The translations under genes were made by a program, and so were the position numbers. From an uncultured Oscillospiraceae bacterium (lineage in GTDB: Bacteria; Bacillota; Clostridia; Oscillospirales; Ruminococcaceae), in contig CASFKY010000076.1 of the NCBI GenBank assembly GCA_949295465.1, positions 1 to 44,661 of the forward strand: DNA of 44,661 bases. The letters run 5' to 3'. Of the stretch, positions 35,524 through 43,598 are shown one piece after another. Within the stretch, counting starts at the first letter, position 1. Each line of letters begins with the position of its first letter. The notes under the pieces were generated by a model. That model had not been told where the DNA came from, searched no databases, and saw only the letters and a list, made by a program, of their open reading frames with translations.

Positions 35524-35555
35524 GCGCAGGCTTTTTTGGGGGCCTGCGCTTTTTT
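35524..35555 (+). terminator. Terminator after the DegV gene
   Basis: An 8-base-pair stem (35524-35531 with 35542-35549) and six T residues. Confidence 0.9.
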
Positions 35556-35565
35556 ATTCCTTTTC

Positions 35566-35594
35566 TTGACAGGGACTTCTTTTGGGGGTAGCAT
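35566..35594 (+). promoter_or_regulatory. Promoter of lrgAB
   Basis: TTGACA (35566-35571), 17-base spacer, TAGCAT (35589-35594). Confidence 0.7.
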
Positions 35595-35600
35595 GGTTTT

Positions 35601-35622
35601 ATGCTGCCTGCGCGGGCAGCAT
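35601..35622 (+). other. Stem-loop at the 5' end of the lrgAB mRNA
   Basis: ATGCTGCC pairs with GGCAGCAT around a 6-base loop, beginning at the expected first transcribed base. No T run follows. The core TGCTGCC/GGCAGCA is the same as in the hairpin before the aspartate aminotransferase gene. Confidence 0.65.
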
Positions 35623-35646
35623 ATCCTTTGTACCAAAGGAGGAACC

Positions 35647-36039
35647 ATGAAATTCATTCGTCAATTCGGCATCATCCTGGCCTTCATCTTTGCGGGAGAA
35701 GGCTTGAGGGCGGTGCTGCCTTTCTCGGTGCCGGCCAGCATCTACGGGCTGGCGCTGCTTTTCCTGGGTCTCTTCACGGGGCTGATCCGGCTGGATTGGG
35801 TGGAGGATGCGGCCGACTGGCTGGTGGCCATCATGCCCATCACCTTTGTGCCCGCCTCGGTGGCCCTCATCGACGACTGGGAGATCCTGCGGCCCTTTCT
35901 TTGGCCGCTGCTGCTGATCTGCACCGTGAGCACCGTGGTGGTCTTCGGTGCTTCCGGCCTGGCCATCCAGGCCCTGATCCGGCTGGAAAAGAAGCCCTCC
36001 CGGCCCGAAAAAGAAAAGGAGGAACCGCCCCATGCGTGA
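35647..36039 (+). CDS. lrgA: LrgA/CidA-family holin-like membrane protein
   Basis: The 130-residue protein has four membrane helices and the CidA/LrgA landmarks (FAGEGLRAVLPFSVPASIYGLALLFLGL-type start at about 16-43, and FVPASVALID). A charged, Lys/Glu-rich tail follows. The family forms small membrane pores or carriers linked to murein hydrolase control and, in Bacillus, to pyruvate or holin-like export. AAAGGAGG precedes ATG 35647. Its end overlaps lrgB by 8 bases. Confidence 0.9.
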   Translation: MKFIRQFGIILAFIFAGEGLRAVLPFSVPASIYGLALLFLGLFTGLIRLDWVEDAADWLVAIMPITFVPASVALIDDWEILRPFLWPLLLICTVSTVVVFGASGLAIQALIRLEKKPSRPEKEKEEPPHA

Positions 36040-36727
36040 ATTTCTGACCTCTTCCTCCTATTTTGGGCTGGTGATCACCATTTTTGCCTTTGAGATCGGG
36101 CTGTGGGTGCGCCGCAAACTCAAGCACAGCGTCTTCAACCCCATGCTCATCGCCATCGCCCTGCTCATTCCTCTCCTGCTGGCGCTGGACATCGAGCCGG
36201 CCAGCTACTCGGCCGCCGGGGCCGACCACCTGAACCACCTGCTCACCCCCTGCACCGTCTGCCTGGCGGTGCCCCTCTACCGCCAGCTGGAGGCCCTGAA
36301 GCGGAACCTGCGGGCCATTCTGGGGGGCATTTGCAGCGGCGTCATCGCCTGCATGGTCTGCGTGCCGGTGATGTCCCTGCTCATGGGCCTGAGCCATGAG
36401 CAGTATGTCTCCCTGCTGCCCAAGAGCATCACCACCGCCATCGGCATCGGCATGACTGAGGAGATGGGAGGCTATGTTTCCATCACCATCGTGGCCATCT
36501 ACTTCACCGGCACCCTGGGCAATGTGATCGCGGACGGGCTGTGCAAGCTGTTCCGCCTCACCGACCCGGTGGCCCGGGGCGTGGCCATCGGCACCGCCTC
36601 CCACGCCATGGGCACGGTGCGGGCTTTGGAGATGGGCGAGACCGAAGGGGCCATGAGCGGCCTCTCCATCGCCATCACCGGCCTGCTCACCGCCCTGGTT
36701 GCCCCCTTCTTTGCCGGTATCCTGTGA
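36032..36727 (+). CDS. lrgB: LrgB/CidB-family membrane protein
   Basis: The 231-residue protein has 6-7 helices and the LrgB signatures FNPMLIAIALLI (about 35-46), LTPCTVCLAVPLYRQ, LLPKSITTAIGIGMTEEMGG (about 132-151) and GTASHAMGTVRALEMGE (about 191-207). It works with LrgA in the same membrane complex. Translation starts inside the end of lrgA after AAAGGAGG. PTS-sensing two-component control is usual in other bacteria, but no such link is evident here. Confidence 0.93.
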   Translation: MREFLTSSSYFGLVITIFAFEIGLWVRRKLKHSVFNPMLIAIALLIPLLLALDIEPASYSAAGADHLNHLLTPCTVCLAVPLYRQLEALKRNLRAILGGICSGVIACMVCVPVMSLLMGLSHEQYVSLLPKSITTAIGIGMTEEMGGYVSITIVAIYFTGTLGNVIADGLCKLFRLTDPVARGVAIGTASHAMGTVRALEMGETEGAMSGLSIAITGLLTALVAPFFAGIL

Positions 36728-36788: not shown

Positions 36789-37004
36789 TGGCGCCTTTAT
36801 AAAAAGTTCAAAATCCTTTGGCTTTTTGTTCACGATCTCCACAAGGGTTTTTCAAACTTCCGGGGTATCCTTAAAACAAGCTCAAAGAAGCCCACAGAAC
36901 CGAGGGCTGCTGCCCCCTTTTTCCTACCGCCCGGCTCCGGGGCGCGATGACGATCGCCTCCGCCCGTGCGGACAACCAATTCCTCCCTATTGGGGAGTTC
37001 AGAT

Positions 37005-37056
37005 AAAAAGAACCGGGAAGGCCGCCCTCTCCATGGGAGGGGCGTCTTCCCGGCTC
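37005..37056 (-). terminator. Terminator of the pilus-like operon
   Basis: On the minus strand a long imperfect hairpin (GAGCCGGGAAG.../...CTTCCCGGTTC arms, ATGG loop) runs into TTTTTATC, 22 bases after the stop of the PilT-like gene. Confidence 0.8.
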
Positions 37057-37077
37057 TGTGCATCTTTGTGCTCTGCT

Positions 37078-38148
37078 TTACCGGGCCGCTTTCAGCCGGC
37101 GCTCCAGGTTTTCCGGGTGAGCGCAGTAGGTGAGGGCTGTCTCGGCGCTGATCCGCCCTTCCCGGTACAGGGCCAAAAGGCTGTCGTCCATGCTGCGCAT
37201 CCCCTCGGCGGCCCCCGCCTGGATGGCCGCGTCGATCTGGTGGGTCTTGGCCTCCCGGATGAGATTGCGCACCGCCATGTTGGCAAAGAGGATCTCAAAG
37301 GCGGGCACCAGCCCGCCGTCCAACGTGGGCACCAGCTGCTGGCTCACCACCGCCCGCAGCACCATGGCCAGCTGGATGCGCACCTGGGCCTGCTGGGTGC
37401 CGGGGAAGGAGTCCACGATCCGATCCACCGTGCTGGCCGCGCCGGTGGTGTGCAGGGTGCTGAAGAGCAGCTGGCCGGTCTCGGCGGCGGTCATGGCCAC
37501 CTCGATGGTCTCCCGGTCCCGCATTTCCCCCAGCAGCAGCACGTCCGGGCTCTCCCGCAGGGCACTGCGCATGGCGCTGATGTAGGAGGCACAGTCGGTG
37601 TAGATCTCCCGCTGGGTCACGATGCACCGATCATGGCGGTGCACATATTCCACCGGGTCCTCCATGGTGATGATGTGGCCCTCCCGGCTGTGGTTGATGC
37701 TGTCGATCAGGCAGGCCAGGGTGGTGGATTTGCCGCTGCCCGCCTGGCCGGTGACCAGCACCATCCCGTTTTTGAAGCCGGCGGTGCGCATCACCTGGGG
37801 CGGAATCCCCAGGCTGGCCGCGTCGGGCAGCCCGAAGCGGATGACCCGGATCACCGCCCCCAGGCTGCCCCTCTGGTGCAGCACGTTGACCCGGAACCGG
37901 CCCAACCCGCTGAGGGAAAAGGAAAAGTCATCGTCGGCGTCCGGCCGCTGCACCCTGCCCGGGTCCCGGCCGGCCATCTCATAGATCTGACCGATCAGCC
38001 GGGCCGTGTCGTCGGGCATGAGGCGGCCCTCTTCCTCCTGCCGCCGCTGGGCGCCCCGCACCTTGAAGGTCACCGGGAGGCCCGCAATCAGGAACAGGTC
38101 GGAGGCCTTGGTCTCCAGCGCCTGCCTGAGGATCTCCATCATCTCCAT
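37078..38148 (-). CDS. PilT-type (retraction) secretion ATPase
   Basis: The 356-residue cytoplasmic hexameric ATPase has Walker A GQAGSGKST (134-142), the Asp box ITMEDPVEYVH (160-170), Walker B DVLLLGEMRD (202-211), the His box LLFSTLHTT (227-235) and, near residue 292, AVRNLIRE, the near-exact PilT motif AIRNLIRE that marks retraction ATPases. It should power pilus retraction or, lacking a partner, be the only motor of this system. It is the last gene of the operon; ATG 38148 has AGGAG upstream. Normal length for PilT (about 345-370). Confidence 0.93.
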   Translation of the reverse strand: MEMMEILRQALETKASDLFLIAGLPVTFKVRGAQRRQEEEGRLMPDDTARLIGQIYEMAGRDPGRVQRPDADDDFSFSLSGLGRFRVNVLHQRGSLGAVIRVIRFGLPDAASLGIPPQVMRTAGFKNGMVLVTGQAGSGKSTTLACLIDSINHSREGHIITMEDPVEYVHRHDRCIVTQREIYTDCASYISAMRSALRESPDVLLLGEMRDRETIEVAMTAAETGQLLFSTLHTTGAASTVDRIVDSFPGTQQAQVRIQLAMVLRAVVSQQLVPTLDGGLVPAFEILFANMAVRNLIREAKTHQIDAAIQAGAAEGMRSMDDSLLALYREGRISAETALTYCAHPENLERRLKAAR

Positions 38149-38160
38149 CTTCTCGCTCCT

Positions 38161-38565
38161 TTACGAGGCCGGCCCCTGCCAGAGCTGGCCCATCTGGGTG
38201 TCCTGCGTCCAGTTCACCGTCATTTCCCAGCGGGTGATCTGCCAGCCCGCCTCGCCCTGGCTCAGGGCCACGTTCAGCAGGCAGCCGTCCTCCCATTCAA
38301 AACGGGCAGTCACTTCCCCGCCCTCTCTTCGGGCAGGCTCGGGCAGTTCGCCGCCCCCGGCCAGCGCCTCGTCCAGCCGGGCCAGCCAGGCCTGGGCCTC
38401 GGCCTCATGGGCATACTGGCTCTCCAGCCGCTGGGCATATTTTTGGGTCATGAGCCAGTCGGCCCGGGCGGTCATCCCCCCCAGCAGCACCAGCAGGGCG
38501 GTACAGGCCAGGATCACCGCAAACAGCAGGCTCACCGACCCCAGCCGCAGAGGTTTGTGTCTCAC
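38161..38565 (-). CDS. Pseudopilin-like membrane protein (pilus-like operon)
   Basis: The 134-residue protein has a short basic N terminus, one membrane helix (about 10-31, starting RLGSVSLLFAVIL) and an outside domain that opens with a helix (ADWLMTQKYAQRLESQ). The layout is that of a pilin-like subunit, but the prepilin cleavage motif G-F-x-x-x-E is missing. Similar proteins recur beside PilT-like genes in Clostridia. It overlaps the upstream gene by 4 bases and lies 12 bases before the ATPase gene. Confidence 0.7.
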   Translation of the reverse strand: MRHKPLRLGSVSLLFAVILACTALLVLLGGMTARADWLMTQKYAQRLESQYAHEAEAQAWLARLDEALAGGGELPEPARREGGEVTARFEWEDGCLLNVALSQGEAGWQITRWEMTVNWTQDTQMGQLWQGPAS

Positions 38566-39011
38566 AGGCCTCCTCCTTCCCCGCCGGGCCGGTACCGGGC
38601 GGTGGTCAGCTCATACAGCTCCTGGCCGTCTCCGGCCCCGCAGACCCGGATCTGGCAGTTCCAGAGCGCCCCCGCCCCGGTGGCCTGAGGCTGCTGCTCC
38701 ATCTCCAGCCGGTAGGCCGCCTTCCCGGGAGGGCAGTTTTCTCCCTCCCCGTCAAAAAAGGCCAGCACCCGGTTCTCTTGCTCCACTTCGCCCCCCAAAA
38801 GGAGGGCCGCCTGGCTCAGATCCTCGCTGCCGGCAAACACCTCGGCGGCATTGCGGGCCAGACCTGCCGCCTGGTTGAGCTGCCGGGCCTTCCGGGAGAG
38901 GAGGGCCGACTGGCCGAAGGCCTGGGCCAGCAGGGCCAGCGCCCCCAGAAAGGCCAGAAGCAGCGCCAGAAGCTGGATCTGGAAGCTGCCGGGCAATTTT
39001 CGCTCAGCCAA
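38562..39011 (-). CDS. Pseudopilin-like membrane protein (pilus-like operon)
   Basis: The 149-residue protein has one N-terminal membrane helix (about 11-29, FQIQLLALLLAFLGAL) followed by a helical linker (LSRKARQLNQAAGLARNAAEVF) and a beta-rich outside domain with two Cys residues. No clear prepilin cleavage site is seen. ATG 39011 lies within the end of the upstream gene (8-base overlap), so production is coupled. A minor pilin or inner-membrane alignment protein (PilN/PilO-like position) is possible. Confidence 0.68.
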   Translation of the reverse strand: MAERKLPGSFQIQLLALLLAFLGALALLAQAFGQSALLSRKARQLNQAAGLARNAAEVFAGSEDLSQAALLLGGEVEQENRVLAFFDGEGENCPPGKAAYRLEMEQQPQATGAGALWNCQIRVCGAGDGQELYELTTARYRPGGEGGGL

Positions 39012-39468
39012 GGCTCACCCCTCCTTCACAGCGCAGCGCCACCCAGGCGGTGCCCTCGCCGGTGGTCAGGCGGATCATCCCCGCCTGCTGCTCGGCCTCA
39101 AAGCGATCGGTGCGGGCCAGCAGCTGGGCGCTCTCCGTCTCAAAGGGGGCGTCCTCCGGGCAGAGCTGCTGATACAGCCCGCCCTCATACAGATAGATCC
39201 GGCTCTCATAGCCGGTATCCCCCTGGCGCAGGCAGAGGGCCGTGCCCTCGGGCCCCTCTTTCAGGCTCACCCCGCCGGCCGAATCCCCCGCCCGCAGGGC
39301 GGTGACCAGGGTGGACAGGCTGGCCCGGAGCGCCTCATTCTGCTGCCGGCTGGACGTGAGGGACGCATACAGCCGGCTGCTGGCCGCCGCCAGCGCCAGC
39401 AGCGCCAGGATCATCATGGCGTACAGCGCCAGGGTCATCACCGCGCCCCTGCCCCGTTTCGGGTCCAT
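39004..39468 (-). CDS. Pseudopilin-like membrane protein, DUF4860-like (pilus-like operon)
   Basis: The 154-residue protein has one membrane helix (about 11-29) after a basic start (MDPKRGRGAV) and an outside domain with ALCLRQGDTGYESRIYLYEGGLYQQL, a pattern I associate with DUF4860 proteins of Clostridia. ATG 39468 is used because AGGGGG lies 6 bases upstream; the longer frame to 39543 overlaps the previous gene. Its role as a pilus subunit is inferred from gene order. Confidence 0.7.
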   Translation of the reverse strand: MDPKRGRGAVMTLALYAMMILALLALAAASSRLYASLTSSRQQNEALRASLSTLVTALRAGDSAGGVSLKEGPEGTALCLRQGDTGYESRIYLYEGGLYQQLCPEDAPFETESAQLLARTDRFEAEQQAGMIRLTTGEGTAWVALRCEGGVSLG

Positions 39469-39481
39469 CCGCTTCCCCCTT

Positions 39482-39793
39482 TCAGCCCTTTTCCAGCACT
39501 TCCACCGTGGGGGGAAGATTGGAGGAAAAGGCCTCGTAGACAATGTAGTATCGGTCGTGGTTCAGCACCAGGCCGTAGTTTTTTTCCAGATATTCCAGGC
39601 TGGAGGGATAGGCACCCTCCACCGCATAGCACTGGGCGGCGCTGCGGCTCACTGCCTCCCGGATGGAGCGGACGGTCTGCCGGGAGAGATCCCGCCCCCA
39701 CCATCGGTCGGCGCCCAGCCAGAGGGCTGCCGCCAGCAGCGCCGCCCCGGCCAGCCGCAGCAGCCAGTGCTTCTTTTTGCCCTCCTGATACAC
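39482..39793 (-). CDS. Small pseudopilin-like protein (pilus-like operon)
   Basis: The 103-residue protein has one membrane helix (about 12-28) and then IREAVSRSAAQCYAVEGAYPSSLEYLEKNYGL, which is the helix-plus-AYPxSL pattern of GspG-type major pseudopilins, with a C-terminal YYIVYEAFSSNLPPTVEV. The N terminus (MYQEGKKKHWLLRLAGAA) has no Gly-Phe cleavage site and no Glu5. It is the best candidate for the main subunit. It lies 16 bases after the PilC-like gene. Confidence 0.75.
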   Translation of the reverse strand: MYQEGKKKHWLLRLAGAALLAAALWLGADRWWGRDLSRQTVRSIREAVSRSAAQCYAVEGAYPSSLEYLEKNYGLVLNHDRYYIVYEAFSSNLPPTVEVLEKG

Positions 39794-39809
39794 GGGGCTC
39801 CCTCCCTTC

Positions 39810-40850
39810 TCATCCCATGGCCGTCAGGATGCCCGCCAGAGGCAGCATCACCGAGAGGAGCACTGCCCCCACCGACAGGGTCAGAAAACCGGTGAGCAGG
39901 GGCTCGGCCCCATCCACCAGGGCGTAGATCTTCTCCTCCGCGTCCCGGGCCGACACCTCTGCCAGCCGGCCGAGGGTCTCCTCCAGCCGGCCGGCCCGGC
40001 TGCCGCTGAGCAGCATCCGGCCATACAGGGGCGAAAGCACCCGGTGGGCATAAAAGGTCTGGGCCAGGCTCTCCCCCTCGTCCATCTCCTGCTGACAGAC
40101 TTCCAGGGTTTTGGCCAGGGCGCTGTGGCCGCACAGCGGGCGGGCCTGCCGCAGGGCGTCATCCTCCCGCAGGCCGCTGGCCAGAAGGGCGCGCAGGGCC
40201 CCCACACACCGGGCCAGGGCCAGCTGGCGCAGGGCCGGGCCGGTGCCGGGCAGTTTTTCCAGCAGGCGGCCCAGACCAGGGCGCAGAGCCTCCACCCGAG
40301 ACGCCCCCGCCCCGGCCAGCAGAGCCAGACAGAACAGCCCCACCAGGACAAGGGCCGCCCAGCCCACCCCGCCGGCAACGGTGATATACCCATAGGAGGA
40401 GGCCGCCAGGCTGCCGGACAGGCTGTCGTAGACTCCCTCGAACACCGGCAGCACTCCCCGCACCAGCACCAGCAGGATCAGGCACATGAAGAGCAGCAGC
40501 GCCACCGGGTAGATCAGCGCGTTTTTCAGCCGGACGGCCAGGGCGTCCTGCTTGTCGTAGTATTCGGCCAGGGCCTCCAGGGTCTCCTGGGTGCGGCCGG
40601 CGCCCTGGCCCGCCTCCAGCAGCCGGCAGGCATAGTCGGGCAGGGCACCCGTATCGGCCAGGGCACCCGCCAGGTCCCGCCCCTCGTCCGCCGCCTTTGC
40701 GGCCCGGCTCAGCACCTGGCCCATCAGGCCGCCGGCGTCCCGGGACAGCAGGTCCAGGGCCTCGGCGCCCCCCGCGCCCCCGGCCAGCAGCATGGCCAGC
40801 TCCTCGCAGAGGAGGCTCACCCCCCGGGCCTTCAGTTTTGTTTGTGCCAT
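39810..40850 (-). CDS. PilC/GspF-type inner-membrane platform protein
   Basis: The 346-residue protein has two copies of the GspF domain: an N-terminal helical repeat (LCEELAMLLAGGAGGAEALDLL, about 14-35), a helix pair (about 112-180), then the second repeat (CVGALRALLASGLREDDALRQA, about 205-226) and a final membrane helix (about 316-345). It anchors the ATPase and the growing fibre at the inner face of the membrane. It is somewhat shorter than usual PilC (about 400). ATG 40850. Confidence 0.88.
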   Translation of the reverse strand: MAQTKLKARGVSLLCEELAMLLAGGAGGAEALDLLSRDAGGLMGQVLSRAAKAADEGRDLAGALADTGALPDYACRLLEAGQGAGRTQETLEALAEYYDKQDALAVRLKNALIYPVALLLFMCLILLVLVRGVLPVFEGVYDSLSGSLAASSYGYITVAGGVGWAALVLVGLFCLALLAGAGASRVEALRPGLGRLLEKLPGTGPALRQLALARCVGALRALLASGLREDDALRQARPLCGHSALAKTLEVCQQEMDEGESLAQTFYAHRVLSPLYGRMLLSGSRAGRLEETLGRLAEVSARDAEEKIYALVDGAEPLLTGFLTLSVGAVLLSVMLPLAGILTAMG

Positions 40851-40880: not shown

Positions 40881-41843
40881 CTAGTAAACATACCGATCGG
40901 TGTAGTTGGCGTCGTCGGCCAGATATTGGGCGGAGGCGCCGCTGGCCGCAAAGGTGATGTCCACCCGCTGCCATTGGCCCGGGTTTGCCCGGATCTCCAC
41001 CGTGATCCACCCCTCGTCCCGGATATAGATCTGGTTCCAGGCGTGGTAGATCCCGTCCGGCGCCACATAGCCGGTGATCAGCCGGGTGGGCACCCCCTGG
41101 CTTCGGAGCATGGCCGCCGCCAGGGCCGCATAGTCAAAACAGATCCCCTTGCCGGCGGCCAGGGTCTCGTCCGGGTCGGGCAGGTAGCCGCTCTGCACCG
41201 TATCGGCCTTGGGCTGGTCGTAGGAGATGTGGTCCACCAGATACCCGTACACCGCCGCCGCCAGCTGGGTGGAATCCCCGCAGTCCCGGGCCAGCTGCCC
41301 GGCCAGGGCCACACAGGCCGAATCCCGGGTATAGGCCACCATCTGGCTGGGCCGCAGGTAGGGCTGGAACTCATCCGCCAGCTCCACCGGCACTTCCTGG
41401 GCCCAGGTCTCGGCATAGGTGCTGCCGGAGATGTTCTCCATCACCCGCAGCTGGTAGCTGCCGTCCCCCATGTTCAGGGGCACCGATACCGGCGAGCCGT
41501 CCTGGGGCAGCCAGTACTTGTACTGGCTCTCTCCCATGCTCACCAGCAGCACCACCGCCTGGTTGCTCTGGCTCTCGGCGGCAAGGTAGCCCTGGGCCGT
41601 GTGGCTCAGATCCAGCCGGGCGGCCCCGCAGTCCTGAGCGGCCCCCTCCTCAAAGGGGCTGTCCGCAAAGGGGGGCGCCTGGTAGGGGGCCGTTTCCGCC
41701 TCCTCCCCGCTCTGGGCCGGAGCCGACGCCCCGACCGATCCCCCCGGCCCGGCCGAGGAGGCGCAGCCCGCCAGCAATGCGAATGCCGCGCAAAGGCACA
41801 GGGCCCGCAGCTTTTTGTGCCCGGGCCTTTGCTTTTGCCGCAT
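40881..41843 (-). CDS. Transglutaminase-like lipoprotein
   Basis: The 320-residue protein has a lipoprotein signal ending in LLAGC (Cys27), a Ser/Gly/Pro-rich linker, a beta domain and a transglutaminase-like core with GKGICFDYAALAAAMLR (Cys235), YHAWNQIYI (His267) and GWITVEI, where the usual triad Asp is Glu283. Such proteases/transamidases act on cell-surface peptides. ATG 41843 has AAGGAGG 7 bases upstream. It is the gene just before the PilC-like gene (30-base gap), so it may process or crosslink the surface structure; this is an inference. Confidence 0.85.
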   Translation of the reverse strand: MRQKQRPGHKKLRALCLCAAFALLAGCASSAGPGGSVGASAPAQSGEEAETAPYQAPPFADSPFEEGAAQDCGAARLDLSHTAQGYLAAESQSNQAVVLLVSMGESQYKYWLPQDGSPVSVPLNMGDGSYQLRVMENISGSTYAETWAQEVPVELADEFQPYLRPSQMVAYTRDSACVALAGQLARDCGDSTQLAAAVYGYLVDHISYDQPKADTVQSGYLPDPDETLAAGKGICFDYAALAAAMLRSQGVPTRLITGYVAPDGIYHAWNQIYIRDEGWITVEIRANPGQWQRVDITFAASGASAQYLADDANYTDRYVY

Positions 41844-41886
41844 AGAACGCCTCCTTTGCCGATACATATGGTATTGCCCCGAGACC

Positions 41887-43530
41887 TCAGCGCCGCCGCC
41901 CGGTGGACAGTTTTTCCGGGTGGTGCAGGTCGGCCTTGAGCAGATGCTTTTTCACATCCATCAGGCACTGGGAGGCCATGGACAGACGGTCCACCCCCAG
42001 CCGCAGATAGTGCTCGGCCATGCGGGGCTGGCCCGCGGCCAGCCCGCAGACGCAGACCGGGATCTTGGCCTCCCGGGCGGCGTCCACCGTCATCTGGACC
42101 AGACGGTCCACCCCCAGGCTGTCGGTGCGGAAATATTTCTCCACCGCCGGGTCCATCCGATCGGCGGCGCAGGTGTACTGGGCCAGGTCGTTGGTGCCGA
42201 TGCTGAAGAACTGGCATCCATGGGCGGCCAGCTCCCGGGCGGTGAGGGCCGCCCCCGGCACCTCGATCATGCAGCCGAAGGTCAGGTCCTCCTTAAAGGC
42301 CACCGACCGCTTGCGCAGGTTTTCCCGGGCGGCGTCCACCAGTTCCATGGCCTCGTCCCACTCGCTCACGTCCCCCACCATGGGGAACATCACCCGCAAT
42401 TCTCCCCGGGCCCCCGCCCGCAAAAGGGCATAGATCTGGGGCATAAAAATGTCCTGCCGCTGGAGGCAGAGCCGCAGCCCCCGCAGCCCCAGGGCCGGGT
42501 TGGGCCCGGGCTTGAGGCTGACCCCATCCGAAAACTTGTCGGCCCCGATGTCATAGGTGCGGATGGTCACCGGCCTGCCCCCCGCGGCGGCCAGGCAGCT
42601 CACATAGAAATAGAACTGCTCCTCTTCGGGGGGAATGCGGCTGCCCGCCAGGGCAAACTCGGTGCGCAGCAGCCCCACCTCCTGGGCGCCGCAGGCCACC
42701 GCCGCCTCAATATCGTCGGGGCCGCTGCAATTGCCCAGCAGCCGGAAGGGCACCCCGTCCGCAGTGCGGCAGGGGGCATGCAGCAGGGCCTCCCAGTCGG
42801 CGGTGTGGCGGCTGCTGGCGTTCTTCTGCTCCAGAATGCGGGCCTGACAGGCCTCGTCCGGCTCCAGGATCAGCTCCCCCTGCACCCCGTCCAGGGCCGC
42901 CTGCATCCCGTCGCAGTTTTCCAGAAAATCGCTGTCCACCTTGATGAGGGCCGGGATACCCAGAGTCTGGGCCACCAGGGCCGCATGGCTCTGGGCGCTG
43001 CCCTCCACGGTCACAATGCCCAGGATCATCCCGCTGCCCGCCGAGAAGATGTCGGTGGGGTAGAGGGTCTCGCTGGCCAGGATCATGGGCTCGGTGAGAT
43101 GCAGCCGCTCCCGGGGCTTGCCGTCCAGGATGGAGACCACCCGGCGGCAGACATCCAGCACATCGGTGGCCCGGTCGGCGATATAGCTGTCGTCCACCTG
43201 CTGGAGCCGGCGGGCAAAGATCTCGCTGGCCCGCTCCACCGCCTCGGCGCTGCCGGTGCCCGAGAGGATAAAGTCGCCCACCGCCTTTACCAGTACCTCG
43301 TCGTCCAGCAGCACCCGCTGGAACAGCAGGATGTCCTTTTCCTCGCCGGTGGCCCGCTCTTCCAGTTCTTCCAGCTCGTTTTTGGCGATGACCACCGCCG
43401 CATCAAAGAGCGCCCGCTCCCGCAGAGGGCCCTGCACGGTGCGGCTCACATTGCCGATGCCGTGGTCAATCCGCTTGATCTTGCCCAGCGCATACCCGCC
43501 GGACACTGCCTGCCCCTTAAAAACCCGCAT
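41887..43530 (-). CDS. ptsI: Phosphoenolpyruvate-protein phosphotransferase (PTS enzyme I-like)
   Basis: The 547-residue protein has the enzyme I layout: N-terminal HPr-binding helices, the swivelling domain with phospho-His182 in GSAQSHAALVAQTLGIPA, and the PEP-binding barrel with LLRTEFAL, the FKEDLTFGCMIEVPGAA strand and the active-site Cys in VCVCGLAAGQP. It takes phosphate from PEP for HPr. ATG 43530 follows AAAGGAG. It is shorter than typical (about 570) and has no HPr gene beside it. It is 43 bases upstream of the transglutaminase gene, so it may share the transcript with the pilus-like operon. Confidence 0.9.
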   Translation of the reverse strand: MRVFKGQAVSGGYALGKIKRIDHGIGNVSRTVQGPLRERALFDAAVVIAKNELEELEERATGEEKDILLFQRVLLDDEVLVKAVGDFILSGTGSAEAVERASEIFARRLQQVDDSYIADRATDVLDVCRRVVSILDGKPRERLHLTEPMILASETLYPTDIFSAGSGMILGIVTVEGSAQSHAALVAQTLGIPALIKVDSDFLENCDGMQAALDGVQGELILEPDEACQARILEQKNASSRHTADWEALLHAPCRTADGVPFRLLGNCSGPDDIEAAVACGAQEVGLLRTEFALAGSRIPPEEEQFYFYVSCLAAAGGRPVTIRTYDIGADKFSDGVSLKPGPNPALGLRGLRLCLQRQDIFMPQIYALLRAGARGELRVMFPMVGDVSEWDEAMELVDAARENLRKRSVAFKEDLTFGCMIEVPGAALTARELAAHGCQFFSIGTNDLAQYTCAADRMDPAVEKYFRTDSLGVDRLVQMTVDAAREAKIPVCVCGLAAGQPRMAEHYLRLGVDRLSMASQCLMDVKKHLLKADLHHPEKLSTGRRR

Positions 43531-43598
43531 AGGAACGCTCCTTTCTATCGCCGGGGCGGAGTTTGTCTCCCTTTGGCCCGGCATTTTTCCTTGTCTGT

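What the first reader, a model, noticed from the sequence alone, without database searches (positions are those of the whole stretch)
37078..40850. Compact pilus/secretion operon with a retraction-type ATPase but no extension ATPase, peptidase or canonical prepilin
Seven tightly packed genes (transglutaminase lipoprotein, PilC-like, four one-helix proteins, PilT-like) end in a shared terminator. The ATPase has the near-exact PilT signature AVRNLIRE. None of the four one-helix proteins has the G-F-x-x-x-E cleavage motif, and neither PilB nor PilD is in the window. Either the partners lie elsewhere, or this is a simplified machine in which a PilT-like motor builds or moves an uncleaved fibre.
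Basis: partly seen in the sequence, partly recalled or inferred. Interest (0 to 1): 0.75.

Follow-up and report, generated by a model that had tools for sequence, protein, structure and literature searches.

The report
PilT-only pilus-like machine of Clostridia
A seven-gene cluster, found in the same order in many Clostridia including gut species, encodes a relative of the bacterial pilus machine that has only the 'pull-in' motor and, in many species, apparently neither the 'push-out' motor nor the enzyme that matures pilus subunits, so it probably works in a way not yet described.

Summary
The seven genes are real, tightly packed and end at a strong terminator: transglutaminase-like lipoprotein, PilC platform, four one-helix proteins (P3-P6) and a true PilT-family ATPase (TIGR01420, 401.7 bits, cut-off 319.1). 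The set is conserved: a P3 profile hits 45 of 393 genomes of the class, and of the 80 best of 339 matches in a genome-collection scan, 67 carry all seven genes in one order.

In 11 of 55 set-bearing genomes, 7 of them at least 98% complete, this PilT is the only match to the PilB model at E 1e-5 and no A24 prepilin peptidase is found. Other carriers also have a PilB-bearing pilus locus; the six such PilTs sampled lie outside the set's PilT clade. P5 and P4 derive from prepilins: some orthologues keep the cleavage motif. In the window's lineage the cleavage Gly is mostly gone while Glu5 mostly stays. P3 and P6 resemble P5 by profile.

Best reading: an independent, PilB-free, peptidase-free descendant of the type IV filament machine, in which PilT and PilC act on a membrane-anchored, initiation-complex-like set of pilins.

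The parts
40881..41843 (-). Transglutaminase-like lipoprotein (TG), first gene; lipobox LAGC; Cys243, His275, Asp303 (numbered on the 328-aa ORF that starts at 41867)
   Evidence: Pfam Transglut_core 85.1 bits, cut-off 23; C, H and D identical in 101 of 101 TG matches of the fetched loci, window included (that these form the triad is recalled from the family); start and SD
41850..41857 (-). Shine-Dalgarno AAAGGAGG before TG
   Evidence: read
39810..40850 (-). PilC/GspF/ComGB-like platform protein, 346 aa
   Evidence: T2SSF 123.2 bits, cut-off 25.2, two stretches; best NCBIfam match GspF 147.8, below its equivalog cut-off 424
39482..39793 (-). P3, 103 aa, one helix then CYAxEGxYPxSLxYL...YG; suspected GspG/ComGC-like subunit
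   Evidence: C55, Y56, E59, G60, P63, Y73, P95 invariant in 64 sequences; P3 profile against degenerate P5 profile 92.7% probability over 88 columns, reversed controls at most 1.3%; no family match
39004..39468 (-). P4, DUF4860 protein; minor-pilin-derived
   Evidence: DUF4860 40.8 bits, cut-off 25; orthologue L108:7825-8415 matches both DUF4860 and N_methyl
38562..39011 (-). P5, GspI/PilV-like (name recalled) pilin-derived protein; Glu5 is Q here, E in most relatives
   Evidence: orthologue L118:5955-6389 matches N_methyl; degenerate P5 profile against canonical prepilins 75-84% probability, reversed control 0.4%
38161..38565 (-). P6, one-helix protein with an invariant Gly at the pilin cleavage position and almost never a Glu5; GspK/PilX-like by recalled pattern
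   Evidence: Gly9 invariant in 55 of 55; Glu5-type site in 2 of 106; P6 against P5 profile 86.1% over 22 columns, controls at most 2.1%; no family match
37078..38148 (-). PilT-family ATPase
   Evidence: TIGR01420 401.7 bits, cut-off 319.1; Walker A/B, His box and AVRNLIRE; only T2SSE match at E 1e-3 in G000 and G001
37000..37057 (-). Intrinsic terminator of the operon
   Evidence: -38.6 kcal/mol, z -6.6, U-run follows

Best explanation
This is a self-contained machine descended from the type IV filament family that works without an extension ATPase and, in this lineage, without prepilin processing. Shown by sequence: a conserved seven-gene unit; a PilT-family motor with its catalytic motifs; a PilC platform; P5 and P4 of prepilin descent; no PilB and no A24 peptidase detected in several near-complete genomes; a transglutaminase-like protein with Cys, His and Asp kept. 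Supported by profile comparison: P3 and P6 are kin of P5. Inferred: P3 plays the major-pilin-like and P4-P6 the tip-like role; the four sit on PilC as a small membrane-anchored complex like the pilus initiation ('priming') complex; because their leaders stay on and no PilB is present, they should not polymerise into a long filament. PilT, turning PilC, would cyclically seat, rotate or pull this complex, and the work is used at the cell surface on or through the transglutaminase-like lipoprotein, for instance to expose it, feed it or couple it to a wall or surface substrate. The PilT step has a precedent: in V. cholerae MSHA pili, PilT is needed to start assembly, and the authors propose that it may mature the minor-pilin initiation complex (PMC9815625, abstract and Discussion read). 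The surface task is the least certain step.
For: Independence: of 55 set-bearing genomes, 26 also have a PilB-type match (E below 1e-90) and 29 do not; in 11 the set's PilT is the only match at E 1e-5. None of those 11 has an A24 match or an A24_N match over cut-off. G188 has neither PilB nor A24 while G433 of the same genus has both. 44 of 46 set-linked PilTs form one clade (97/92) apart from the 15 other PilTs sampled, 14 of which come from loci found through PilB (six of these in set-bearing genomes). Seven-gene order. Pilin descent and loss of cleavage: Glu5 in 96 of 106 P5, and Gly at -1 in 27 of those 96; canonical sites lie on one side of one branch (100/99) of the PilC tree of 49 loci; N_methyl matches in orthologues. 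P3, P4 and P6 against P5 profiles 92.7, 74.7 and 86.1%, reversed controls at most 2.4%, TG N-terminus controls at most 4.1%. Motor motifs. TG residues and purifying selection.
Against: No structure or experiment. P3 and P6 give no significant match to any known pilin family or solved pilin; against canonical prepilins P3 reaches only 14-15% (reversed control 5%), and P6 and P4 nothing above controls. P6 keeps an invariant Gly at the cleavage position and most P5 keep Glu5, which in pilins pairs with the freed N-terminus (recalled); both are odd if nothing is ever cleaved. G123, G240, G364 and G447 have an N_methyl P5 yet no A24 match (G240 has an A24_N fragment at a contig edge), so drafts can hide a peptidase. 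G048 (100% complete) has PilC-P3-P4-P5-P6 and no T2SSE match at all, and G302 has lost PilT at the locus, so the motor is not always needed. TG was not found near the cluster in the three f30 loci fetched. Weak T2SSE-profile matches (for example 27.7 bits in G005) exist beside PilT in some genomes; I take them for other ATPases such as SpoIIIAA (recalled, not tested).
Confidence: 0.5

Rival explanations
1. PilT is bifunctional here and builds and retracts a real, short fibre of (mostly uncleaved) P3 with a P4-P5-P6 tip, as the single motor CpaF does in Tad pili.
For: Single-motor extension and retraction is known for CpaF (PMC12019362, abstract). P3 carries a major-pilin-like CYAxEGxYP pattern and is kin of P5 by profile; the layout of platform, one conserved small subunit and three others resembles comG (resemblance recalled; order).
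Against: The motor is of the PilT, not the TadA, family (TIGR01420 401.7 against TIGR03819 45.9 bits). Uncleaved leaders should block helical packing (recalled for pilins). P3 has no Glu5-type site in 108 of 110.
Confidence: 0.25
2. The set depends on PilB, PilD or pilins of an unlinked canonical pilus and is an accessory retraction or tip module of it.
For: 26 of 55 set-bearing genomes also encode a PilB-type ATPase and 40 of 55 an A24 peptidase.
Against: 29 of 55 lack PilB, and 7 genomes of at least 98% completeness have no other match to the PilB model at E 1e-5 and no A24 match. In the six set-bearing genomes where it was sampled, the pilus locus has its own PilT outside the set's clade.
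Confidence: 0.08
3. A DNA-uptake (competence-like) or secretion pseudopilus of Clostridia: same parts, with the leader retained or removed by an unknown peptidase.
For: The ComG-like gene content (platform, conserved small subunit, three further pilin-like proteins, one ATPase; recalled); PilC matches ComGB weakly (88.4 bits, cut-off 240).
Against: The ATPase is not over the ComGA cut-off (125.2 against 300); no ComC-type A24 peptidase; a lipoprotein transglutaminase is foreign to ComG (recalled). Com DNA-transport genes were not tested.
Confidence: 0.12
4. Decayed remnant of a type IV pilus.
For: Loss of PilB, PilD and cleavage motifs; PilT missing in G048 and G302.
Against: Seven genes in one order over many families, ATPase motifs kept, TG residues 101 of 101 and dN/dS 0.10-0.39.
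Confidence: 0.05

Closest known systems
Type IVa pilus (T4aP) machine
   Same: PilT-family ATPase, PilC-type platform, P5/P4 of prepilin descent
   Different: no PilB, no A24 peptidase and no PilM detected in the own genome or G001; no class III signal in the window's P3-P6; adds a transglutaminase lipoprotein
ComG competence pilus of Bacilli (layout recalled)
   Same: one operon with platform, one conserved small subunit, several minor-type subunits and one ATPase
   Different: ATPase is PilT-type rather than ComGA-type and usually last in the operon; no ComC-type peptidase; transglutaminase present
Type II secretion pseudopilus (GspE-F-G-H-I-J-K, recalled)
   Same: GspF is the platform's best NCBIfam match (147.8 bits); P5 GspI-like and P6 GspK-like by recalled pattern
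   Different: no GspE in the genome and no secretin in the operon; equivalog cut-offs not reached
MSHA pilus initiation by PilT (V. cholerae)
   Same: PilT is proposed to act on the minor-pilin initiation complex before processive extension (PMC9815625)
   Different: MSHA uses MshE for processive extension; the set has no such ATPase in this lineage
Tad pilus with the bifunctional motor CpaF
   Same: single motor
   Different: different ATPase subfamily; TadB/C platform and Flp pilins (recalled)

Membership tests
PilT/PilU ATPase family | score above the TIGR01420 cut-off; catalytic motifs and A-x-R-N-x-I-R-E | tested here: met
   401.7 against 319.1 bits; motifs
Type IVa pilus | extension ATPase PilB in the genome | tested here: not met
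   only match in G000 and G001 is the set's PilT
Type IVa pilus | prepilin peptidase (A24) | tested here: not met
   none in G000, G001; A24_N none in G000, one 11-bit match far below cut-off in G001
Type IVa pilus | class III prepilin signal in subunits | tested here: not met
   no N_methyl match in G000, G001; met in P5 (rarely P4) of f30, f57 and f90 orthologues
Type IVa pilus | PilM of the PilM-N-O alignment complex | tested here: not met
   no PilM_2 match in G000, G001; PilN and PilO not tested
Type IV filament superfamily | platform protein of the T2SSF family | tested here: met
   two T2SSF stretches
Type IV filament superfamily | helical fibre of pilins | not testable with these tools
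Type IV pilin family (P5) | N-terminal pilin helix homologous to prepilins | tested here: met
   profile comparison 75-84% against 0.4% for the reversed control; orthologues match N_methyl
Type IV pilin family (P4, DUF4860) | N-terminal pilin helix | tested here: met
   met in an orthologue: L108 P4 matches DUF4860 (60.1) and N_methyl (23.4, cut-off 21.2); P4 against P5 profile 74.7%; but the P4 profile against canonical prepilins gives nothing
Type IV pilin family (P3, P6) | homology to pilins | tested here: inconclusive
   for: kin of P5 by profile, 92.7% and 86.1%; against: no match to Pfam pilin families, 14-15% or nothing against canonical prepilins, toxin co-regulated pilin only at E 0.92 for P3
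ComG competence system | ComGA-type ATPase and ComC | tested here: not met
   NF041000 125.2 against 300; no A24
Type II secretion system | GspE ATPase and GspO | tested here: not met
   TIGR02533 114.3 against 630.25; no A24
Tad pilus | TadA-type ATPase | tested here: not met
   TIGR03819 45.9 against 373.15; no other T2SSE match in G000, G001
Transglutaminase-like superfamily | core fold score and Cys-His-Asp | tested here: met
   activity not testable

The most novel reading that the evidence does not exclude
A widespread class of type IV filament-derived machine in Clostridia that has given up both the assembly ATPase and pilin maturation: a PilT-type motor alone drives permanently membrane-anchored pilins, and so does mechanical work at the cell surface without making a pilus, together with a surface transglutaminase-like enzyme.
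Probability: 0.5. Interest if true: 0.88.

Novelty: new variant of a known kind. Interest (0 to 1): 0.76.

Why it matters
PilT is known as the retraction motor that takes apart what PilB builds. Here evolution has apparently kept PilT, PilC and pilin-type subunits without PilB and, in a number of genomes, without the peptidase. That makes two questions directly testable: what PilT can do to a pilin complex on its own, and whether pilins can function uncleaved. Carriers include named species with a single T2SSE match at E 1e-8 (Merdimmobilis hominis, Christensenella hongkongensis, Negativibacillus massiliensis; A24 was tested only for the first, through G005). The set carries a Pfam family with no paper in the library (DUF4860) and includes lineages with a canonical P5 that show what the maturation step looked like before it was lost.

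Tried and rejected
Partners elsewhere: rejected for the same-genus genome. Decayed pilus: disfavoured by conservation. T2SS, ComG and Tad membership: rejected on score cut-offs. P3 or P6 as pilins by direct search: not established; only the comparison with P5 is positive. A link between P5 motif state and A24 presence did not come out: by my reading, 15 of the 55 genomes have an N_methyl match at P5 and 4 of these (G123, G240, G364, G447) have no A24 match, while of the other 40, 11 have none and 29 have one; A24 also serves Tad and other pili, and the list is capped, so this test says little. Literature: ten searches listed no description of this set; the library holds only open-licence papers, and of most listed papers I saw only the listing. 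A 2011 survey (PMC3244431, passages and one section seen) seems to count one 'pil' operon in Clostridium bolteae (column headings inferred), and an E. bolteae contig carries the set (L156); that operon may be this set, but its supplement could not be read.

Rows left out: three weak P3 hits of the 45 (G080, G199, G287) were not carried into the 55-genome tests. G022 (contig edge: PilT and P6 seen) and G026 (contig edge: PilT only) are counted among the 55. The collection scan kept the best 80 of 339 matches, so gene order round the other 259 was not examined. The P5 state is set by a motif pattern that also accepts Ala at -1 (one row, L103) and uses 49 loci of my choice; five or so rows with Gly at -1 but another +1/+2 count as degenerate. 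The PilT tree uses 46 set-linked, 15 other PilT and 8 PilB rows of my choice, with 11 of 19 PilB rows dropped. Long branches (L119, L054, L056, L120) are flagged in the PilC tree.
Full report
WHAT IS THERE. The operon lies on the minus strand, 41843 to 37078: a transglutaminase-like lipoprotein, a PilC-like platform, P3 (103 aa), P4 (DUF4860), P5, P6 and a PilT-type ATPase, with gaps of 30 bases or less and two small overlaps. The transglutaminase starts at 41843 behind AAAGGAGG, so the finding's interval should be widened. A hairpin of -38.6 kcal/mol running into a U-rich tail ends the unit at about 37000-37057. Families: T2SSF (8e-36), T2SSE (1.1e-40), Transglut_core (5.2e-24) and DUF4860 (2.3e-10). 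In NCBIfam the ATPase is over the cut-off of the PilT/PilU family and far below those of PilB, GspE, ComGA and TadA.

WHOLE GENOME. The own genome (84% complete) has one T2SSE and one T2SSF protein, both in this operon, no A24 peptidase and no N_methyl prepilin. The same-genus genome G001 (99% complete) also has one T2SSE match, no A24 and no N_methyl, and neither has a PilM match.

CONSERVATION. Among 61 relatives searched, seven (G003, G010, G015, G017, G020, G025, G040) have a PilB locus and, apart from it, a further PilT-like gene; others have only the lone one. Of 15 fetched copies, 13 show the set around them (TG not found in two, L061 at a contig end and L066) and two lie at contig edges with PilT and P6, or PilT alone. 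A P3 profile finds 45 of 393 class-level genomes, the own one included, 43 of 381 at high quality. All 30 loci returned, chosen by their P3 hit, carry PilC-P3-P4-P5-P6 contiguously (three are the window or profile members). In one genome per GTDB species, one short P3 pattern gave 339 matches confirmed by tblastn; of the best 80 loci, 67 have TG-PilC-P3-P4-P5-P6-PilT, four stop at or just after P4 near the end of the locus held, two have TG downstream, four lack a recognised TG, one lacks TG and shows PilC twice, one lacks PilT (L150), and one has PilC and PilT split (L171). Carriers named in the record titles include Merdimmobilis hominis, Christensenella hongkongensis, Lacrimispora, Enterocloster bolteae, Flavonifractor, Sinanaerobacter, Sedimentibacter and Negativibacillus.

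NO PARTNERS. I tested 55 set-bearing genomes (17 relatives and 38 class genomes; three weak P3 hits left out). With the PilB model 26 have a match below E 1e-90 and 29 do not; in 11 the set's PilT is the only match at E 1e-5: G000, G001, G005, G022, G026, G030, G047, G188, G266, G356, G364. A24 is found in 40 of 55 and in none of these 11. Seven of the 11 are at least 98% complete (G001, G005, G030, G188, G266, G356, G364), and G188 is one contig. A24_N agrees: no match over cut-off in the 11; G240, which has no A24 match, has an A24_N fragment at a contig edge. With the looser T2SSE model some of these genomes show further weak matches, for example 27.7 bits in G005. G433, of the same genus as G188, has PilB and A24, so G188 has probably lost the pilus and kept the set. 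Of 20 genomes reached through loci, three have a single T2SSE match at E 1e-8: M. hominis, C. hongkongensis and N. massiliensis.

THE MOTOR. The set's PilTs mostly keep Walker A (GPAGSGKST; the window has GQAGSGKST), Walker B, the His box and A-x-R-N-x-I-R-E. In a tree of 46 set-linked PilTs, 15 other PilTs (14 from loci found through PilB, one an unlinked copy in G003) and 8 PilBs, 44 of the 46 form one clade (97/92); the two from family f57, where PilT stands first in the operon, fall outside.

THE SUBUNITS. P5 is a pilin that lost its cleavage site in most lineages. Orthologues in f30, f57 and f90 read GFTLIEL and the like (one f57 row has AFTMVE) and match N_methyl; in six f30 genomes (G123, G167, G240, G302, G318, G364) P5 is the only N_methyl match at E 0.1. 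Over all 106 P5, 96 have Glu5 before the hydrophobic stretch, and 27 of those 96 have Gly at -1; the window itself has Gly-1 but Gln for Glu5. On a PilC tree of 49 loci the canonical state changes once, on a 100/99 branch. That canonical is ancestral is inferred from pilins at large and from the PilT tree, where f30 and f90 branch early; against this, the unlinked f48 copies, whose P5 is degenerate, branch earlier still. P4 orthologues keep Gly-1 and Glu5 in 5 of 110, and one matches both DUF4860 and N_methyl, so DUF4860 looks like a minor-pilin family. P6 has an invariant Gly at that position in 55 of 55 and a Glu5-type site in 2 of 106, the pattern I recall for GspK. P3 has an invariant CYxxEGxxP core that recalls GspG and ComGC. 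Direct searches prove neither, but profile against profile P3, P4 and P6 are kin of the degenerate P5: 92.7% over 88 columns, 74.7% over 48 and 86.1% over 22, with reversed controls at most 2.4% and a TG N-terminus control at most 4.1%. The same comparison of P3, P4 and P6 with 17 canonical prepilins of the region's pili is weak or empty, and only P5 passes it.

THE TRANSGLUTAMINASE. Cys243, His275 and Asp303 are identical in 101 of 101 TG matches of the fetched loci. The window copy has a lipobox (LAGC); a simple lipobox pattern was seen in the first 60 residues of only 28 of the 101, many of which have uncertain starts. It is the first gene in most loci, lies downstream in a few (L103, L108, L184, L197), and was not found within the flanks of the three f30 loci fetched.

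HOW IT PROBABLY WORKS. A PilT ring docks on PilC, on which the four anchored subunits are seated. In V. cholerae MSHA, PilT is needed for initiation and may mature the minor-pilin complex (PMC9815625, abstract and Discussion read); single-motor machines exist in Tad (PMC12019362, abstract). The set looks like the initiation stage made permanent: motor, platform and tip-type subunits, without the extension motor. Lack of cleavage makes a long fibre unlikely. What the motion is for, probably something involving the transglutaminase-like lipoprotein at the surface, is a guess.

COMPARISON. Denise et al. 2019 (PMC6668835, passages seen) describe a T4aP model with PilD as a mandatory gene, and note MSH loci that may borrow a peptidase from another system of the same genome; here several genomes have none to borrow. 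Pelicic 2019 (PMC6916266, passages seen) gives PilM-N-O and PilT-powered retraction as features of monoderm T4aP, with prepilins processed by PilD. No described system with PilT as the sole motor and no peptidase was found in ten searches of an open-licence library. I class this as a new variant of the type IV filament kind, not as a member of T4aP, T2SS, Com or Tad.

Noticed in passing
L119 (G048:C2:65000-79000): A 100% complete genome with divergent PilC-P3-P4-P5-P6 but no T2SSE match anywhere and no A24; the gene after P6 is ClpP-like.
   Followed up: partly
L118 (G302:C71:30000-46000): PilT is gone from the locus: the gene after P6 is RNase H-like, as is the one that follows PilT in the related locus L105, and P6 ends early; canonical P5 and a 281-aa A24 frame remain in the genome.
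   Followed up: partly
L107, L122 and L106 (G083, G213): In genus g91 of family f48 the set's PilT lies about 40 kb from TG-PilC-P3-P6; in L107 the neighbour is an HD-domain gene.
   Followed up: partly
28 of 111 loci scanned (L103-L122, eleven of L054-L068, L123-L202): A BTAD/SARP-type transcription regulator gene lies within the fetched flanks, often next to the set; none in the window.
   Followed up: partly
L171 (Lacrimispora xylanisolvens CP070896.1): PilC and PilT are each split over two ORFs, unlike close relatives; sequencing error or mutation.
   Followed up: no
G188: Three N_methyl proteins remain elsewhere in a one-contig genome with no A24 match and no PilB.
   Followed up: no
G383: One genome with three P3 matches (C163, C35, C88); in the C88 copy P4 reaches the N_methyl cut-off.
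   Followed up: no
window 41887-43584 and 35536-36727: Neighbours read by eye from the ORF list as PTS enzyme I (before the operon) and an LrgA/LrgB-like pair (after it); not searched.
   Followed up: no
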